Shown here: one piece after another, positions 58,061 through 64,000 of the stretch | How the letters are laid out: the number at the start of each line of letters is the position of its first letter | Position numbering within the stretch: position 1 is the first letter of the stretch | Source: Longispora fulva | GTDB lineage: Bacteria > Actinomycetota > Actinomycetes > Mycobacteriales > Micromonosporaceae | Length of the DNA stretch: 64,000 nucleotides | NCBI RefSeq assembly: GCF_015751905.1 | Contig: NZ_JADOUF010000001.1 | Span: 5,642,001-5,706,000, forward strand | Reading direction: 5' to 3' | Made by a program: the position numbers and the translations under genes | The notes under the pieces: model-generated | What the model was told of the DNA's origin: nothing | Databases searched by the model: none | What the model saw: only the letters and a program-made list of their open reading frames with translations

Positions 58061-58133
58061 GCCCTCGTAGCTCAGGGGATAGAGCATCGGTTTCCTAAAC
58101 CGTGTGTCGCAGGTTCGATTCCTGCCGGGGGCA
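58061..58133 (+). tRNA. tRNA-Arg (anticodon CCT)
   Basis: It folds as a 73-nt tRNA. The acceptor stem GCCCTCG pairs with CGGGGGC (one T-G), the anticodon loop is TTCCTAA (anticodon CCT), and the T arm is GCAGG-TTCGATT-CCTGC. The discriminator is A and CCA is not encoded. The sequence after it changes to lower-GC, gene-poor DNA, as at an island attachment site. Confidence 0.93.
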
Positions 58134-58154
58134 CCCCAGATTGACCACGCAAAC

Positions 58155-58190: not shown

Positions 58191-58813
58191 GAGTCTTTCT
58201 ACCCGGCTGTACCCGGCCACCCGTGCCGGACCCACGCGACACGCACGCGTGCAGCATTGAACAGGGAATCTGGCCAGGGTCGAGGCGTAGACGGTCGGGC
58301 CTTCGAGGCGTTCCATCTGGCGTTGGGCTGCGACAGCTTCCGTTTGATCACACACCCGATATCCTCCAGCACGGCTCACCGGGCCATCGTTCTGCTCTAC
58401 GAGGAGCTCCAGCCGGTTTCCCAGTGGTCCCCGTAGCCGGATCACTCTGCCCGTTCGACGGCGGGTGATCAAAGCCTGACACCTTCGTGCCGGGCATGTC
58501 GGGGCCAGCCTGCAGCTCGTGACAGCCCCACTGGGCTGCGGCAGGCTCATCCACATCGGAAGCGCCGCCCCGGACGAGGGCGGAAAGGCCGGAAAGTCAA
58601 TCATTTAGCATTAAGCTAACGAGCGGAGTCTGCTCATGTCCAGGTTCGTCGCACTGATCCTCATCGCCGTGCCCCTCACCGGCAACAGCATCTGCGCCGC
58701 CGCGGCAGGCCAGGACAGCCGACGGTACTCGCCGACGGCGACAGCTGGGGCTGACATGACCGAGCGCAGGCTCCTACACTGGCTCTGGCCAGCTGGTTCT
58801 TCGAAGGAAACCC

Positions 58814-58921
58814 GTGAAGAAGCACATCAGACCGGTACTGGCCGGCGTCGGCGCGCTGGCCCCTACCGCGTGCGGCTCCGCCGCCGCCCGTCGACCGTAC
58901 CGTCCGGAACGCCGACGGTAG
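58814..58921 (+). CDS. Short lipoprotein-like ORF, probably truncated
   Basis: GTG at 58814 follows CGAAGGAAACCC, a good ribosome site, and encodes 35 residues with a lipoprotein signal (MKKHIRPVLAGVGALAPTAC, lipobox PTAC-G) before an early stop at 58919. The reading frame after the signal peptide is short and Arg-rich, so this looks like the start of a larger lipoprotein gene that has been cut off. The free signal peptide itself would be odd as a product. Confidence 0.35.
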   Translation: MKKHIRPVLAGVGALAPTACGSAAARRPYRPERRR

Positions 58922-59015
58922 CCCCCGCGACTCCCGCCAACCGTAACCACCCGAGAGACGGCGCCCCGCCGACCTACCGGCGGGCACATCCAGGCACACC
59001 ACGGGGGCCCGGTAA

Positions 59016-59292
59016 CGACTCCAGCGGCTGCGTGAGGTCTGCGAACTCAGCATCCGGCAGCTGGCTCCGCTCCCCGATCGGGGGTCATGCCCGGCCTGGA
59101 CAAGACCGCCAAGACCCGGTCGTTGAAGATCAGCAACCTCCGCGGAGCCCGGCTGGCCCCGCGTTCGTCCGGTCGTACCTGCAAGCGTGCAGCGGCACGC
59201 CCGAGCAGGTCGATACGTGGCTGGGCGCCTACCGGCGTATCTACCCGGCGCAACGCACGGCCATGGCCGCATGCGTTTCCGTAAGTGACTAG
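59016..59292 (+). pseudogene. Decayed XRE-type HTH regulator
   Basis: Two pieces of an XRE-like regulator lie in different frames: RLQRLREVCELSIRQLA (59016-59066) and FVRSYLQACSGTPEQVDTWL followed by GAYRRIYP (59164-59247). The first resembles the opening helices of an HTH domain; the second resembles the segment that follows it in actinobacterial XRE proteins. The DNA in between is out of frame and degraded. No start codon is preserved. Confidence 0.5.
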
Positions 59293-60329
59293 TCTTCGGC
59301 ATCCCCAGTTTCACCGTCAGGACCAGAGGTTGACCGAAGTCTTTGTTCACTGATCACGCTCGCGAGCTGCTCGATAGTGAGCCAGTCGCTGGCATTACGG
59401 TGGATCATGCGGTGACAGTTAGAACAAATGAGCGCGAGGTCCTCCAGCCGGGTCTTTGTGGGACCGCTCACCGACAATGGCGTGCGGTGATGGCACTCGA
59501 TGTAGCCTTCACCCCGCGGTCCATATGTGCGAAAGAAATCAAACCCACACACCTCGCAGGCGATGGCGACCCCTAGGCGTCTAGCTGCCGCTAACTTGGC
59601 GGCTTTCAGCTTTGGGTCGCGTTCGCGGCGGAGGTGCCGGCGCTGCAGCACTCGCCCCTCGTCCGCCGAATGACCATCAAGGTCAGGGTCCACAACGGGT
59701 GATTGCCCTATCGAATCGCCCGCTTCGATTTCGGCGCGAAGAGCTTCGGCGTATGCGTGCATCTCCTCTGGGCGAGCAAGGAATTCTGACAATACCTCCC
59801 CATCGACTTTGTTTCCGTGCGTCGGCACACCGGCATAGCTGGGGTGACGGGTCGCAATGTCGGCGGTCTTGCGGACGACTCCGGCAGGATTGCGGAACCT
59901 CTCGCCGCGCACCTCAATGGGGTGGATCGCTGAGGTCTGCAACAGCTCTGATAGGTCCAGCACGCGCGGATCGTTGACTCCGACCACTTTCCAGTCGTTG
60001 GTCACCACAAGATCGCAGGCCAATACGATCTCATCGCGGGTCCAGTCGGGGTTGCGGATCTGTCGCACAATGAAGCCAAGGCTCCGAAGAAGCGTCGCTA
60101 CCGTCTTGTCTCCACCGGTAAAGTCGCCAGGAAGAAGTTGGACATGTTGGCTAACTCCGTGGGCGTATCCAACGATGGCCTTGGAGTCATACCTCTGACC
60201 GTTGTGTTCGATGAAGTATTCACGGGCCGTGCCGAAGCCAGTCGACGCCAAGAATTCCTCCCGGCCAAGCCGATCAAACTCCGCGATGGCCTTCAACACA
60301 TCCTGAGCAGTCACGTCTGCGAGTGTCAC
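59289..60329 (-). CDS. HNH endonuclease with ScoMcrA-like N-terminal domain
   Basis: This 346-residue protein starts with a domain (VTAQDVLKAIAEFDRLGREE, then GFGTAREYFIEHNGQRYDSK and AIVGYAHG) that resembles the N-terminal head of the Streptomyces ScoMcrA nuclease. NPDWTRDEIVLACDLVVT follows. The C terminus has an HNH nuclease: paired cysteines CEVCGFDF, ECHHRTPL and CSNCHRMIHRN, giving His-His-Asn-His and zinc ligands. It is shorter than ScoMcrA and lacks an obvious middle SRA-like part. GC content is lower than in the housekeeping genes. It lies in the same orientation as, and 56 bp after, the four-gene defence cluster. It probably cleaves foreign or modified DNA. Confidence 0.85.
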   Translation of the reverse strand: MTLADVTAQDVLKAIAEFDRLGREEFLASTGFGTAREYFIEHNGQRYDSKAIVGYAHGVSQHVQLLPGDFTGGDKTVATLLRSLGFIVRQIRNPDWTRDEIVLACDLVVTNDWKVVGVNDPRVLDLSELLQTSAIHPIEVRGERFRNPAGVVRKTADIATRHPSYAGVPTHGNKVDGEVLSEFLARPEEMHAYAEALRAEIEAGDSIGQSPVVDPDLDGHSADEGRVLQRRHLRRERDPKLKAAKLAAARRLGVAIACEVCGFDFFRTYGPRGEGYIECHHRTPLSVSGPTKTRLEDLALICSNCHRMIHRNASDWLTIEQLASVISEQRLRSTSGPDGETGDAED

Positions 60330-60385
60330 GACCCCACCTTAGGGCGAAACCTCGAAGCTCATCGACCCCGAACGCACCAGACCAT

Positions 60386-61483
60386 CTAGTCGAGTAGCAC
60401 CACCGACTGCACTGTGCTCATGTGATTGCCCCTCAGCTGTCCGGAGACGCGCAGCTGGCGACTCGCTCGATGGGCCTCGACCGCCTGCTCGTAGAGCGCC
60501 GGCGACAGGTTGGCGGTGAGTCGTGCCCCGACCCGTAGCAAGCCTGCTGGAGCCCGCAGCCGCAGGGTGACTCTGCCGAAGCCACGGTCGATGCGGTCCA
60601 GTTGGACCACCTGGACGATCAGTTGTACGTCGCGCTCCGCCACGAATCGTGGCAGCTTTCGCGCCGCGTCGCGTATGACGTCCACGAGATGCCGGTCGAA
60701 TCGGAATCGGGGCAACGTCACCGCCGCCGGCAGAACCTGAGCCCAGGCGAATCTGAGGTCAAAGGCCTGTTGCCTGCCGATCATGGCGACGGCGTCACAG
60801 AGGTCGGCTGAGACGCCTTCAGGTGCCAGCCTCGCAAACGGTTCGACGCCGCCTGTTCGGAGTGCTTCGCCGGCCGCACGGTGGGTGGCGCTGATGGCGC
60901 GGTGCAGCTGAAGTACCACGTGACGGTTGAAGGGAAGCGTGCCCTCGTCCGGAGCGGACATGGGCGCAACCACCGGGACCTGGACGGAGAGCACGAAGCT
61001 TCCTGCGGACGGCGCCACCAGACGCGTGGTCTGGACGAAGCGGATCGCTTCGGGCGCTAGTTGAGTGGGCTGGACCAGCGCCGGTTGGCCTGTTGTCGCA
61101 AAGTGCGCAGCGGCGAACATGAGCTTGCGAACGCCGTAGAGCGCGGTGGAGCCCTCAATGAGGCCAATACTCCCCGACGGCAGGTCGGGCAACAGCCGGA
61201 AGTGTTGGGTGTCCACCGCGACCGCGGAGATGTCGCTCAGAATCGCCCCGGGTTCCCGGTCCTCCGCGAGCGCCAGGGTGCATATCCCGTCCCACAACCG
61301 GGACCTGTAGTCCCGGAAGGAGGCGTCGAGCGGCACGAGCAGTTCGAGTTCGTCGTCCGCGACTCCGAGTGTCCACACCGAAGCATGGGGCGCTCGGCTC
61401 TGCTCGGTCCAGCCTGCGCTGCGCACGTACCGCTCGACATTTTCGGGGTCGAGCGCGTCGAGGTCGTCGAGGCGCGGGATCAC
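60386..61483 (-). CDS. Unknown protein (365 aa) coupled to the DUF4365 gene
   Basis: The product starts MIPRLDDLDALDPENVERYV. It has no signal peptide, membrane helix, or clear catalytic motif. It is rich in beta-type and Arg residues, with segments such as WTLGVADDELELLVPLDASF, then RFRFDRHLVDVIRDAARKLP and RVTLRLRAPAGLLRVGARL. I do not recognise a family. Its ATG overlaps the end of the DUF4365 gene by 4 bp, so the two are translationally coupled and probably work together. Its last 60 residues are basic and could bind nucleic acid, which is a guess. Confidence 0.7.
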   Translation of the reverse strand: MIPRLDDLDALDPENVERYVRSAGWTEQSRAPHASVWTLGVADDELELLVPLDASFRDYRSRLWDGICTLALAEDREPGAILSDISAVAVDTQHFRLLPDLPSGSIGLIEGSTALYGVRKLMFAAAHFATTGQPALVQPTQLAPEAIRFVQTTRLVAPSAGSFVLSVQVPVVAPMSAPDEGTLPFNRHVVLQLHRAISATHRAAGEALRTGGVEPFARLAPEGVSADLCDAVAMIGRQQAFDLRFAWAQVLPAAVTLPRFRFDRHLVDVIRDAARKLPRFVAERDVQLIVQVVQLDRIDRGFGRVTLRLRAPAGLLRVGARLTANLSPALYEQAVEAHRASRQLRVSGQLRGNHMSTVQSVVLLD

Positions 61484-62010
61484 AGGGACCTCCGCTGGAG
61501 GGGCATCACGACGGGAGAGGCGGGAAAGAGGTGGTGGATCGAGTGTGCGGTCAGCAGATTGTCCTTCGGTACATCCACTGTCACCGAACCGGCGTCGGTG
61601 ACCGGAATCTGGTTCCTGAACGAGGCCCAGTAACCGGCGTGGTGCAGTCGAAGCGCGTCACGGTCCGCCCGCGCATAGGAGTCCTCGTCCGGTGGAACGA
61701 CAATCAGGAAGAGGAATCGAGGCACATAGAATTCGGTGCCGGCCAATTCGTTGAAGTGTTCGGCCCGCATGCGAAATCGCCATGCGTTGTCGTTGCCCTT
61801 CGGAACGCTCCAGGACTTGACCTGCACCTCGATCTTGGGATATCGAACAGCGTTCCGACGACCCGGATACCCGATGATGAAGTCCTCGCCGGTGACATCG
61901 ACTTCCATCCGGGCGACGACCAGCCCTGAAGCAGCCGCTAGGACCCGCACGAAGGCTTCTCCGTAATACCCCTGTCGCATCTGGGGATTGAGGCCGGTGG
62001 CCGATCTCAT
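61480..62010 (-). CDS. DUF4365 domain protein, PD-(D/E)XK nuclease-like (176 aa)
   Basis: This 176-residue protein has GYYGEAFVRVLAAASGLVVA, then DVTGEDFIIGYPGRRN and YPKIEVQVKSWSVPKGN. The E-x-Q-V-K core (IEVQVKS), preceded by an Asp/Glu-containing strand, matches the DUF4365 pattern, a PD-(D/E)XK-type nuclease fold found in defence loci. It overlaps the 365-residue gene by 4 bp and starts 1 bp after the methyltransferase stop (TGAGATG). It may be the DNA-cleaving part of the system; which substrate it cuts is not clear. Confidence 0.75.
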   Translation of the reverse strand: MRSATGLNPQMRQGYYGEAFVRVLAAASGLVVARMEVDVTGEDFIIGYPGRRNAVRYPKIEVQVKSWSVPKGNDNAWRFRMRAEHFNELAGTEFYVPRFLFLIVVPPDEDSYARADRDALRLHHAGYWASFRNQIPVTDAGSVTVDVPKDNLLTAHSIHHLFPASPVVMPLQRRSL

Positions 62011-62011
62011 C

Positions 62012-63265
62012 TCACGCCTCGTTTCCCTCGGTCTGGCGGGGCGCCGGACCCTTTCCCACGCCGAGATGCGCCGGCTTCTCGCCGACCATGGCGCTGAAGC
62101 GGGCAGGAACCGGCACCGGTGGCACAGCTTGGGGGGCCGAATCCAACCGCGGCCTCAGCAACGCCGGGGCAGCAGGGTACTGGGCGCCAGGCACCAGCAC
62201 CTGGCCGACAAGTGCCCGGGCTATCACTTCGCCTAGAAGAGGCGGCGTGGCGTTGCCTACCTGCTTGACCTGCTCGCCGAAGCGGCCCACCGGTTGCCAG
62301 TCGTCGGGGAAGCTCTGGAGCCGCAGTCGCTCCCGCACGCTGAGCGGTCGGTTGTCCCAGTGGAAGGGGCCGGTCGAAGGGCCAGGGCTTGCCGGCAGCG
62401 TCCAGGCGGGCTTGTCGCGCGCCAGTTTGAGGAGGAAGGACCAGTAGCGCGTCCGATACCCGAATAGTTCGCTACCCCCGCCGCGAGCCGTGAGGTACTG
62501 ATAGTTGGACCCCTCCGGTATCGAGGGCAGCAGATCGGACCAGCCGCCGCTTCCAGACGGAACAACAGCCTCGCACAGGTCGCCCATCGCGTCCCATGCG
62601 GTCATTCGCTCCATGGCATGCGTGGGTGCGGGAAGCGCGAAGGCACTCCCGTCCCTGGTTGCCACCGCAATGACCCGCCGGCGATGCTGCGGCACGCCGT
62701 AGTCCGCAGCGTCCACGATCTCAGCCTGTAGCTGATACGAGGTACCGTGCCGCTTGTTGATCTTGTTGAGGCGACCTTCCACGAAGGGTTGTGCGGAGAT
62801 CTTTCCTCGCAGAAAACCGGCCACGTTCTCGATCAGCAACACCCTGGGCAGGAATGCCTCTACCAGGTCCAGCATAGCGACCACCGTCTGTGCGCGTTCG
62901 TCGTCCATGCCGCGCCGTCCACTGCTGGTCCATTGCCCGGCCACCGAGAACGGCTGACATGGCGGGCCACCGGCGATCACGTCGAGAGCTCCGCTGCCGA
63001 GGCCCAAGTCGCGCGGGCGCAACTCGGTGGCGGCCTGAAGCACATCCGCGCAGTCGAGCAACTTCCAACCGGGGCGGTTCTCCTCCAGGGATCTCCGGCA
63101 CAGTTCGTTCAACTCGACACAGCCGACCGTCTCCAGCCCGGCGGCTTCCAGACCACAGTCGAGGCCTCCGGTACCGGTGAAAAGCGAAAGGACGGTGAGT
63201 CGGGGTAATTCTGGAAGGGTCACTGGGCTGGTCTCCGGTTGATCTGTCGTCGCATTGTCAGGCAA
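62012..63265 (-). CDS. DNA (cytosine-5-)-methyltransferase
   Basis: This 417-residue C5 DNA methyltransferase has motif I LSLFTGTGGLDCGLEAAG, motif IV AGGPPCQPFSVAG (catalytic Cys), motif VI VLLIENVAGFLRG, motif VIII GVPQHRRRVIAVATR, and motif X QVKQVGNATPPLLGEVIA. The target-recognition region between VIII and X (about residues 205-340) is large and contains KPAWTLPASPGPSTGP. It starts 4 bp after the DUF1998 stop and 1 bp before the DUF4365 gene, so it is in the middle of the cluster. The methylated site cannot be read from the sequence. Confidence 0.94.
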   Translation of the reverse strand: MPDNATTDQPETSPVTLPELPRLTVLSLFTGTGGLDCGLEAAGLETVGCVELNELCRRSLEENRPGWKLLDCADVLQAATELRPRDLGLGSGALDVIAGGPPCQPFSVAGQWTSSGRRGMDDERAQTVVAMLDLVEAFLPRVLLIENVAGFLRGKISAQPFVEGRLNKINKRHGTSYQLQAEIVDAADYGVPQHRRRVIAVATRDGSAFALPAPTHAMERMTAWDAMGDLCEAVVPSGSGGWSDLLPSIPEGSNYQYLTARGGGSELFGYRTRYWSFLLKLARDKPAWTLPASPGPSTGPFHWDNRPLSVRERLRLQSFPDDWQPVGRFGEQVKQVGNATPPLLGEVIARALVGQVLVPGAQYPAAPALLRPRLDSAPQAVPPVPVPARFSAMVGEKPAHLGVGKGPAPRQTEGNEA

Positions 63266-63269
63266 ACCC

Positions 63270-64000
63270 TCAGTGGCTCATCAGGCCAGCCACCAGCGCC
63301 CCGGGGCGTCGGAGCAGCTCGAAGGTCGACGTAAACGTGGTCTGTGGATACTGCTGAACCAGGCTGACGACCCGGTCATTCACCGATCCGTCCTCCAGAT
63401 CCGCGAAGGGATGCATGATCGCCAGTCGACGACCACTGTTCCCGACGATCACCGGAGCCTCGTCCATGTCGTCCACGACGAGCCCGAAGTCCTTCGCGAA
63501 CTGGGCGGCAGCGCTCCTGTCCCTCGCACGGGATCGGTCGACCAGTAGCGGTCTACCCCGCATCAGGTCCAACAGGTCGGCTGCCAACCGCCAGTCGAGG
63601 AGCGGGTGCCAGGAGCGGTTGCCATAGTCGCGCAGGCAACGGTGGCAACTGGAATCGCACGGATCCCCACCGTGCTTCTGCAGGCGTGCCATCCACGCGT
63701 CGGCCTCATCGAGGAGTTCCTCGAACTTCTCCCCGAACCGTGCGGCATATCCGGCCCCATTCTCCAGACTGTCCGCGATGAAGACCTCGCCGAGCAGGAT
63801 GTCCTCACGAAGCTGCGGATGCACGCCGACCTGAATCTCATCCGGACCGATGTCGAGCCATGGCGCGGCGGCGTCACGCAGGAGGTAGCCGAGAGACGCC
63901 CAAGCACCCCGTCCAGAGGGGGCCTTCGGGCTAATCTGAAGGCCAGGGTCGAGATGGTCGAGACCGAGCACCAGGACATCCGTTCGCCGACGGGCCGAGA
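63270..64000 (-). CDS. DUF1998 domain protein (helicase or DrmB-like), 5' end beyond the window
   Basis: The open frame runs to the right edge, so the N terminus is outside the window. The visible 243 residues contain the DUF1998 domain: RRTDVLVLGLDHLDPGL, then LGYLLRDAAAPWLDIGPDEI, AGYAARFGEKFEELL, and the cysteine pair in CDSSCHRCLRDYGNRSWHPL. DUF1998 is found at the C terminus of DEAD/DEAH helicases and in DrmB of DISARM. A C-terminal extension (SGRRLAIMHPFADLEDGSVN) follows. It is the most upstream gene of the cluster seen here. Whether it has a helicase domain needs the sequence outside the window. Confidence 0.72.
   Translation of the reverse strand, partial: SARRRTDVLVLGLDHLDPGLQISPKAPSGRGAWASLGYLLRDAAAPWLDIGPDEIQVGVHPQLREDILLGEVFIADSLENGAGYAARFGEKFEELLDEADAWMARLQKHGGDPCDSSCHRCLRDYGNRSWHPLLDWRLAADLLDLMRGRPLLVDRSRARDRSAAAQFAKDFGLVVDDMDEAPVIVGNSGRRLAIMHPFADLEDGSVNDRVVSLVQQYPQTTFTSTFELLRRPGALVAGLMSH

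What the first reader, a model, noticed from the sequence alone, without database searches (positions are those of the whole stretch)
59289..64000. Compact DNA-modification defence cluster with an unfamiliar gene set
Five minus-strand genes sit together: a DUF1998 protein, a C5 DNA methyltransferase, a DUF4365/PD-(D/E)XK-like protein, an unknown 365-residue protein and an HNH nuclease with a ScoMcrA-like head. The first four have gaps of 4 bp, 1 bp and a 4-bp overlap. Cytosine methyltransferase plus DUF1998 recalls class-2 DISARM, but the DrmC phospholipase gene is not seen, and DrmA or DrmE would have to lie outside the window. I know of no named system with this exact combination, so it may be a DISARM variant or a distinct system.
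Basis: partly seen in the sequence, partly recalled or inferred. Interest (0 to 1): 0.78.

Follow-up and report, generated by a model that had tools for sequence, protein, structure and literature searches.

The report
Druantia defence operon with methyltransferase add-ons
The five genes are the tail of a known kind of bacterial anti-virus operon (Druantia type IV) with a DNA methyltransferase, a two-gene nuclease module and a separate nuclease stacked behind it, and comparison with other genomes suggests that this kind of operon repeatedly picks up and swaps such restriction-modification neighbours.

Summary
The five minus-strand genes are real and lie where stated, but the window cuts the operon. 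The genome continues: the "DUF1998 protein" is the last 242 residues of a 1783-residue DruE helicase (window numbering 63270-68621), preceded by a 1027-residue DruF-DruL fusion (68618-71701). This is Druantia type IV, not DISARM. Behind DruE come a C5 methyltransferase, the two-gene candidate module PDC-M02 (DUF4365 nuclease plus a protein with a predicted OB-fold end) and an HNH nuclease with a ScoMcrA head. The exact set does not recur: no PDC-M02 was detected at 95 other DruE loci, and PDC-M02 stands alone elsewhere. A C5 methyltransferase does recur: 47 of 96 DruE loci have one within about 10 kb, against 0 of 22 PDC-M02 loci. The enzymes fall into 17 unrelated families, are swapped between closely related DruE genes, and are often accompanied by a restriction enzyme (EcoRV, SacI, NaeI, NgoMIV, EcoO109I, MvaI/BcnI or AspBHI type). 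Best reading: a Druantia type IV core using an exchangeable methylation mark as self signal, with a borrowed nuclease module behind it. Ordinary as a system; moderately interesting for the swapping pattern.

The parts
63270..64000 (-). druE, 3' part only; the full gene runs 63270-68621 in extended window numbering (1783 aa, YprA-type SF2 helicase with MrfA Zn-binding/DUF1998 domain). The druF-druL fusion (68618-71701, 1027 aa) lies directly upstream, beyond the window edge, overlapping by 4 bp.
   Evidence: PADLOC DruE4 1734 bits over residues 16-1778; DruF4 E 2e-40 (residues 10-586) and DruL4 E 6e-32 (698-1019) for the upstream gene; ORFs in the extended locus L002
62012..63265 (-). C5 cytosine DNA methyltransferase, 417 aa, motifs intact (PPCQPFS, ENVAGF, QVGNATPP)
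   Evidence: PF00145 E 3e-45; PADLOC MTase_II E 2.8e-66 and DruM2 E 1.1e-61; 58-60% identical to the methyltransferase beside a Streptomyces Druantia type IV group
61480..62010 (-). PDC-M02A: DUF4365 PD-(D/E)XK-like nuclease subunit, 176 aa; D43, Q63 and K65 invariant in 11 homologues
   Evidence: PADLOC PDC-M02A E 3.1e-63; PF14280 E 2.3e-16; alignment A9
60386..61483 (-). PDC-M02B: partner of M02A, 365 aa; model has a C-terminal OB-type barrel (residues about 280-365), so probably a nucleic-acid-binding subunit
   Evidence: PADLOC PDC-M02B E 7.5e-93; AlphaFold2 mean pLDDT 86.6; OB-fold chains at Z 7-11 over 280-365 only
59289..60329 (-). HNH endonuclease with a ScoMcrA-type N-terminal head and a C-terminal HNH like EcoKMcrA, 346 aa; no SRA or sulphur-binding domain detected
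   Evidence: 5zmm residues 6-94 E 8e-15 and 6ghc E 5e-5; PF01844; related HNH beside a C5 methyltransferase and Vsr in L083

Best explanation
The locus is a Druantia type IV anti-phage operon (DruF-DruL fusion, DruE) with a co-directional tail: a C5 methyltransferase, the independent two-gene module PDC-M02, and a stand-alone HNH nuclease. Proposed mechanism: the methyltransferase marks host DNA at its site; DruF-L with DruE engages DNA that lacks the mark or is being processed, and the helicase unwinds it. DruE keeps helicase motifs and Zn cysteines, but its C-terminus shows no conserved PD-(D/E)XK pattern, so cutting is probably done by a nuclease encoded nearby, here M02A guided by M02B and/or the HNH enzyme. 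Gene identities and their recurrence pattern are shown by tool results. The role of the mark, the division of labour and any physical coupling of M02 to Druantia are inferred.
For: Identity: DruE4, DruF4, DruL4, PDC-M02A, PDC-M02B and C5 methyltransferase hits. Operon continuity: 4-bp overlap, 4-bp gap, 1-bp gap, 4-bp overlap. Methyltransferase as partner: 47 of 96 DruE loci, ours included, hold a C5 methyltransferase within about 10 kb, 36 of 62 with full flanks, against 0 of 22 PDC-M02 loci. In the 13-tip DruE clade around ours, 12 have one, and the exception (L079) has a type I system with HsdM and HsdR. Swapping: sister DruE genes (56-65% identical) carry methyltransferases only 24-34% identical to ours, while a Streptomyces group with 41-42% identical DruE carries one 58-60% identical; 17 families in all. 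Nuclease next door: DruK PD-(D/E)XK directly after DruE in 26 of 83 loci; recognised restriction enzymes beside the methyltransferase. Invariant catalytic residues in M02A. Methylation is reported as the self mark for Druantia in PMC12904381.
Against: PDC-M02 occurs alone in many replicons and on phage-like contigs and at none of the other DruE loci, so it may be a mere neighbour. No experiment links methylation to type IV Druantia in any paper found. About half of the DruE loci show no C5 methyltransferase, so the mark cannot be essential to all. The published type IV definition says DruM is lacking (PMC8565338). Co-transcription is inferred from spacing only.
Confidence: 0.6

Rival explanations
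1. Plain defence island: Druantia type IV, an orphan or type II methyltransferase, PDC-M02 and an HNH type IV-like restriction enzyme are separate systems that happen to sit together and do not cooperate.
For: PDC-M02 and the HNH family both occur alone in other replicons; the full set recurs nowhere in the loci examined; closest DruE relatives carry other neighbours.
Against: Tight co-directional spacing of the first five genes (counting druF-L) and the strong recurrence of some DNA methyltransferase beside DruE (12 of 13 in the clade plus a type I system in the thirteenth; 0 of 22 PDC-M02 control loci).
Confidence: 0.3
2. Methyltransferase plus M02A-M02B (or plus the HNH enzyme) form a type II-like restriction-modification system, and Druantia next to it only acts on the cut DNA ends.
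For: In other DruE loci the C5 methyltransferase has a recognised restriction enzyme beside it: EcoRV-like (L070, L143), SacI (L076), NaeI (L086, L094, L104), NgoMIV (L115), EcoO109I (L132), MvaI/BcnI (L061). A relative of our HNH stands next to a C5 methyltransferase in L083 and on a Psychrobacter plasmid. DruE of type III prefers 3'-tailed DNA (PMC13192584).
Against: PDC-M02 is found without any C5 methyltransferase in 22 of 22 other loci, so it does not need one for self-protection. The HNH protein also occurs without one.
Confidence: 0.3
3. DISARM variant.
For: C5 methyltransferase plus a DUF1998 domain; weak DrmA and DrmMII cross-hits.
Against: DruE is far better (1734 against 32 bits); upstream genes are druF-druL, then a DUF4291 gene and recQ; no drmB, drmC or drmE.
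Confidence: 0.01

Closest known systems
Druantia type IV (DruE, DruF, DruL; PADLOC, PMC8565338)
   Same: DruE4-class helicase, DruF and DruL parts present in the same order (F, L, E) as in Streptomyces loci L072-L075
   Different: DruF and DruL are fused into one 1027-aa protein; a C5 methyltransferase and PDC-M02 follow in the same direction. Fusions of this kind also occur in L069, L070, L071 and L094, and two long PADLOC DruF2 models contain the DruL part
Druantia type II (DruE, DruF, DruG, DruM)
   Same: DruE2 and DruF2 models also match; methyltransferase matches DruM2 (E 1.1e-61)
   Different: No DruG match; DruL present instead; methyltransferase scores slightly better against general type II models
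PDC-M02 (PADLOC candidate system; no paper describing it was found)
   Same: Adjacent M02A and M02B with a 4-bp overlap; strong match to the family models
   Different: Placed behind Druantia and a methyltransferase; other copies examined stand alone or in phage-like contigs
ScoMcrA (5zmm) and EcoKMcrA (6ghc) methyl-dependent HNH enzymes
   Same: ScoMcrA-type head (residues 5-91) and a McrA-like HNH
   Different: No SRA or sulphur-binding domain detected; 346 aa against 561 aa for ScoMcrA
DISARM class 2
   Same: A C5 methyltransferase and a DUF1998-bearing helicase part
   Different: None of drmA, drmB, drmC, drmE is present

Membership tests
Druantia (any type) | DruE YprA-type helicase | tested here: met
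   PADLOC DruE4 1734 bits, near full length
Druantia type IV | DruE with DruF and DruL | tested here: met
   DruF4 E 2e-40 and DruL4 E 6e-32 in one fused protein next to DruE
Druantia type IV | Lack of DruM and DruG (PMC8565338) | tested here: inconclusive
   DruG: no match. A methyltransferase matching DruM2 at E 1.1e-61 is present but matches MTase_II better (E 2.8e-66)
Druantia type II | DruG present | tested here: not met
   No DruG match among the operon proteins at E 0.01
PDC-M02 | Adjacent M02A and M02B | tested here: met
   E 3e-63 and 7.5e-93, 4-bp overlap
DISARM class 2 | drmA, drmB, drmC, drmE with a C5 methyltransferase | tested here: not met
   Upstream genes read: druE, druF-L, a DUF4291 gene, recQ
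ScoMcrA-type IV restriction enzyme | ScoMcrA head and HNH | tested here: met
   5zmm head E 8e-15; HNH PF01844
ScoMcrA-type IV restriction enzyme | Modified-base recognition domains (SRA, sulphur-binding) | tested here: not met
   No such domain in Pfam or in the 5zmm alignment beyond residue 94
Type II restriction-modification | Cognate endonuclease sharing the methyltransferase's site | not testable with these tools
   Candidates are M02A-M02B or the HNH enzyme; needs biochemistry
OB-fold nucleic-acid-binding proteins (M02B C-terminus) | OB barrel | tested here: inconclusive
   Z 7-11 to many unrelated OB folds over 280-365; a common arrangement

The most novel reading that the evidence does not exclude
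Druantia type IV (and the DruM of type II) is not a closed system but a core that docks onto whatever restriction-modification module stands next to it: the neighbour's C5 methylation, or its cutting, tells DruF-L and DruE what is foreign. Here the docked nuclease is the PDC-M02 pair instead of a classical restriction enzyme.
Probability: 0.25. Interest if true: 0.68.

Novelty: new variant of a known kind. Interest (0 to 1): 0.42.

Why it matters
How Druantia types II and IV tell self from non-self is unknown. If the methyltransferase next to DruE is conserved in presence but exchanged in kind, together with its restriction enzyme, then methylation or restriction by a swappable module is a testable self/non-self signal, and DruM would be reinterpreted as a borrowed restriction-modification part. 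The locus is also one case in which PDC-M02, a computational candidate, sits inside an apparent defence operon.

Tried and rejected
DISARM: rejected after reading 10 kb upstream. Scan of genome contigs with M02B alone: no relative confirmed. Attachment repeats of the tRNA-Arg(CCT) gene at window 58061-58135: no shared word of 14 or more bases over 34 kb. Structure of a DruF-L homologue (L070): mean pLDDT 56, not used. Fold search of M02B: only generic OB-fold rows for residues 280-365, and one match for residues 5-84 at Z 8.0; no function read from them. M02B profile against PDB sequences: nothing. DUF4365 against PDB sequences: nothing meaningful. Promoter and terminator scan: counts close to those of shuffles. 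The idea that the Vsr genes near DruE supply its nuclease: set aside, because they track the C5 methyltransferase almost without exception, as repair partners of C5 methylation do. Mantel test of DruE against methyltransferase identity: weak but positive (rho 0.22, 6 of 999 permutations), so exchange is frequent, not total.

Full report
What is there. The window is bases 5642001-5706000 of a single-contig 8.68-Mb genome. The five reported ORFs are confirmed. Reading beyond the edge shows that the operon starts further right: a 1027-aa gene (68618-71701 in window numbering) overlaps by 4 bp a 1783-aa gene (63270-68621), whose last 242 residues are the reported DUF1998 ORF. Then follow the C5 methyltransferase (gap 4 bp), a 176-aa gene (gap 1 bp), a 365-aa gene (overlap 4 bp) and the HNH gene (gap 56 bp). 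Upstream of the operon stand a DUF4291 gene and recQ. GC3 is 0.65-0.83 in the operon and 0.94-0.96 in typical flanking genes such as recQ.

Identity. PADLOC models give DruE4 (1734 bits, residues 16-1778), DruF4 (residues 10-586) plus DruL4 (698-1019) in the 1027-aa protein, MTase_II or DruM2 for the methyltransferase, PDC-M02A and PDC-M02B for the next two, and a type IV restriction head for the HNH protein. Pfam agrees: DEAD, Helicase_C and MrfA Zn-binding in DruE; C5 methylase; DUF4365; HNH. The HNH protein matches the head of ScoMcrA (5zmm) and the HNH of EcoKMcrA (6ghc). Druantia type IV was defined as DruE, DruF and DruL without DruM and DruG (PMC8565338). Ours meets the positive part; the methyltransferase makes it intermediate between types IV and II, but DruG is not found.

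Does the set recur? None of these 95 showed M02A or M02B (single-sequence searches throughout; an M02B profile for the 80 named-genome loci). PDC-M02 itself was found as a two-gene unit in genomes of the phylum and on plasmids of Gluconobacter, Entomospira, Nostoc, Streptomyces and others, and on phage-like contigs. The 16 genome and plasmid copies had no DruE or C5 methyltransferase nearby, and the 6 viral-contig copies no C5 methyltransferase. So the five-gene set is not a conserved system.

What recurs instead. A C5 methyltransferase lies within about 10 kb of DruE in 47 of 96 loci (ours included), 36 of 62 with at least 4.5 kb of sequence on both sides, and 28 of 62 within 3 kb of the F-L-E cassette; the 22 PDC-M02 loci have none. 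Several Streptomyces loci are near-identical, so counts are inflated; on a DruE tree presence changes 16 times against 31.8 for shuffled labels. In the 13-tip clade around ours, 12 have a C5 methyltransferase and the thirteenth (Agromyces, L079) has type I HsdM and HsdR; the node joining the two halves of that clade has support of only 0.58. The methyltransferases fall into 17 families at 45% identity. The closest DruE genes (Dactylosporangium siamense 65%, Actinotalea 58%, Intrasporangiaceae 56%) carry methyltransferases 34, 28 and 24% identical to ours, whereas a Streptomyces group (DruE 41-42%) carries one 58-60% identical, divergently upstream instead of downstream. The part is therefore kept but exchanged.

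Restriction partners. Genes beside these methyltransferases include EcoRV-like (L070, L143), SacI (L076), NaeI (L086, L094, L104), NgoMIV (L115), EcoO109I (L132), MvaI/BcnI (L061), AspBHI (L080, L089, L104) and HNH enzymes (L083, L084, L103). Vsr repair endonucleases accompany many of them. A PD-(D/E)XK nuclease of the PADLOC DruK families lies directly behind DruE in 26 of 83 loci, and in the Streptomyces group a Septu-like ATPase plus HNH pair (PDC-M01) does. In our locus that position is taken by the methyltransferase and then M02A, another PD-(D/E)XK-type nuclease with invariant D43, Q63 and K65.

Mechanism. DruE of this kind retains the helicase motifs (invariant in alignment A2); published structure predictions call the C-terminal Vsr-like domain of types I and II inactive (PMC12458937), and only H1737 and P1738 are invariant in the last 100 residues here. 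Methylation is reported as the self mark of Druantia, and a phage protein evades type I by inducing site-specific methylation (PMC12904381). I therefore favour: mark by the methyltransferase, recognition and unwinding by DruF-L and DruE, cutting in trans. M02B was modelled well (pLDDT 86.6) and ends in an OB-type barrel, which suits a nucleic-acid-binding partner of nuclease M02A; that fold is common and proves no function. Coupling of M02 to Druantia is a guess from spacing.

Limits. The control set of 22 loci is small and not matched for host or flank length. Gene calls at fetched loci come from ORF heuristics. The M02 search at the plasmid and unnamed-genome DruE loci used single sequences, not a profile. 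No literature on type IV Druantia function or on PDC-M02 was found in the library.

Noticed in passing
L072, L073, L074, L075, L078, L125 (Streptomyces DruE loci), directly after DruE: A conserved pair of AAA ATPase (PDC-M01A, PtuA-like) and HNH nuclease (PDC-M01B) follows DruE; matched by PADLOC in L072, with similar gene sizes and starts in the others.
   Followed up: partly
26 DruE loci, e.g. L108:10453-11568, L114:15421-16437: DruK-type PD-(D/E)XK nuclease directly behind and co-directional with DruE, with four conserved cysteines and a D...DxK pattern.
   Followed up: partly
L151:7444-9113, L153:1572-3255, L154:7372-9092 (IMG/VR contigs): PDC-M02 pair carried on viral or phage-like contigs.
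   Followed up: partly
window 58061-58135: tRNA-Arg(CCT) gene at the left edge of the low-GC3 block; no attachment repeat found.
   Followed up: yes
window 58636-59350: Overlapping ORFs on both strands without Pfam match between the tRNA and the HNH gene; perhaps a decayed gene.
   Followed up: partly
L002:15848-16354 (window numbering 71848-72354): DUF4291 gene that matches only profile positions 56-180, probably 5'-truncated.
   Followed up: no
L002:16466-18286 (recQ): PADLOC DpdF model PDLC02864 matches an ordinary RecQ helicase at E 4e-301, so some DpdF models seem to be RecQ-like and would give false calls.
   Followed up: no
PADLOC models PDLC00023 and PDLC00016 (DruF2, 1011 and 1030 positions), seen with L072:8994-9971: A separate DruL protein matches their C-terminal part, so these DruF2 models appear to describe F-L fusions.
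   Followed up: partly
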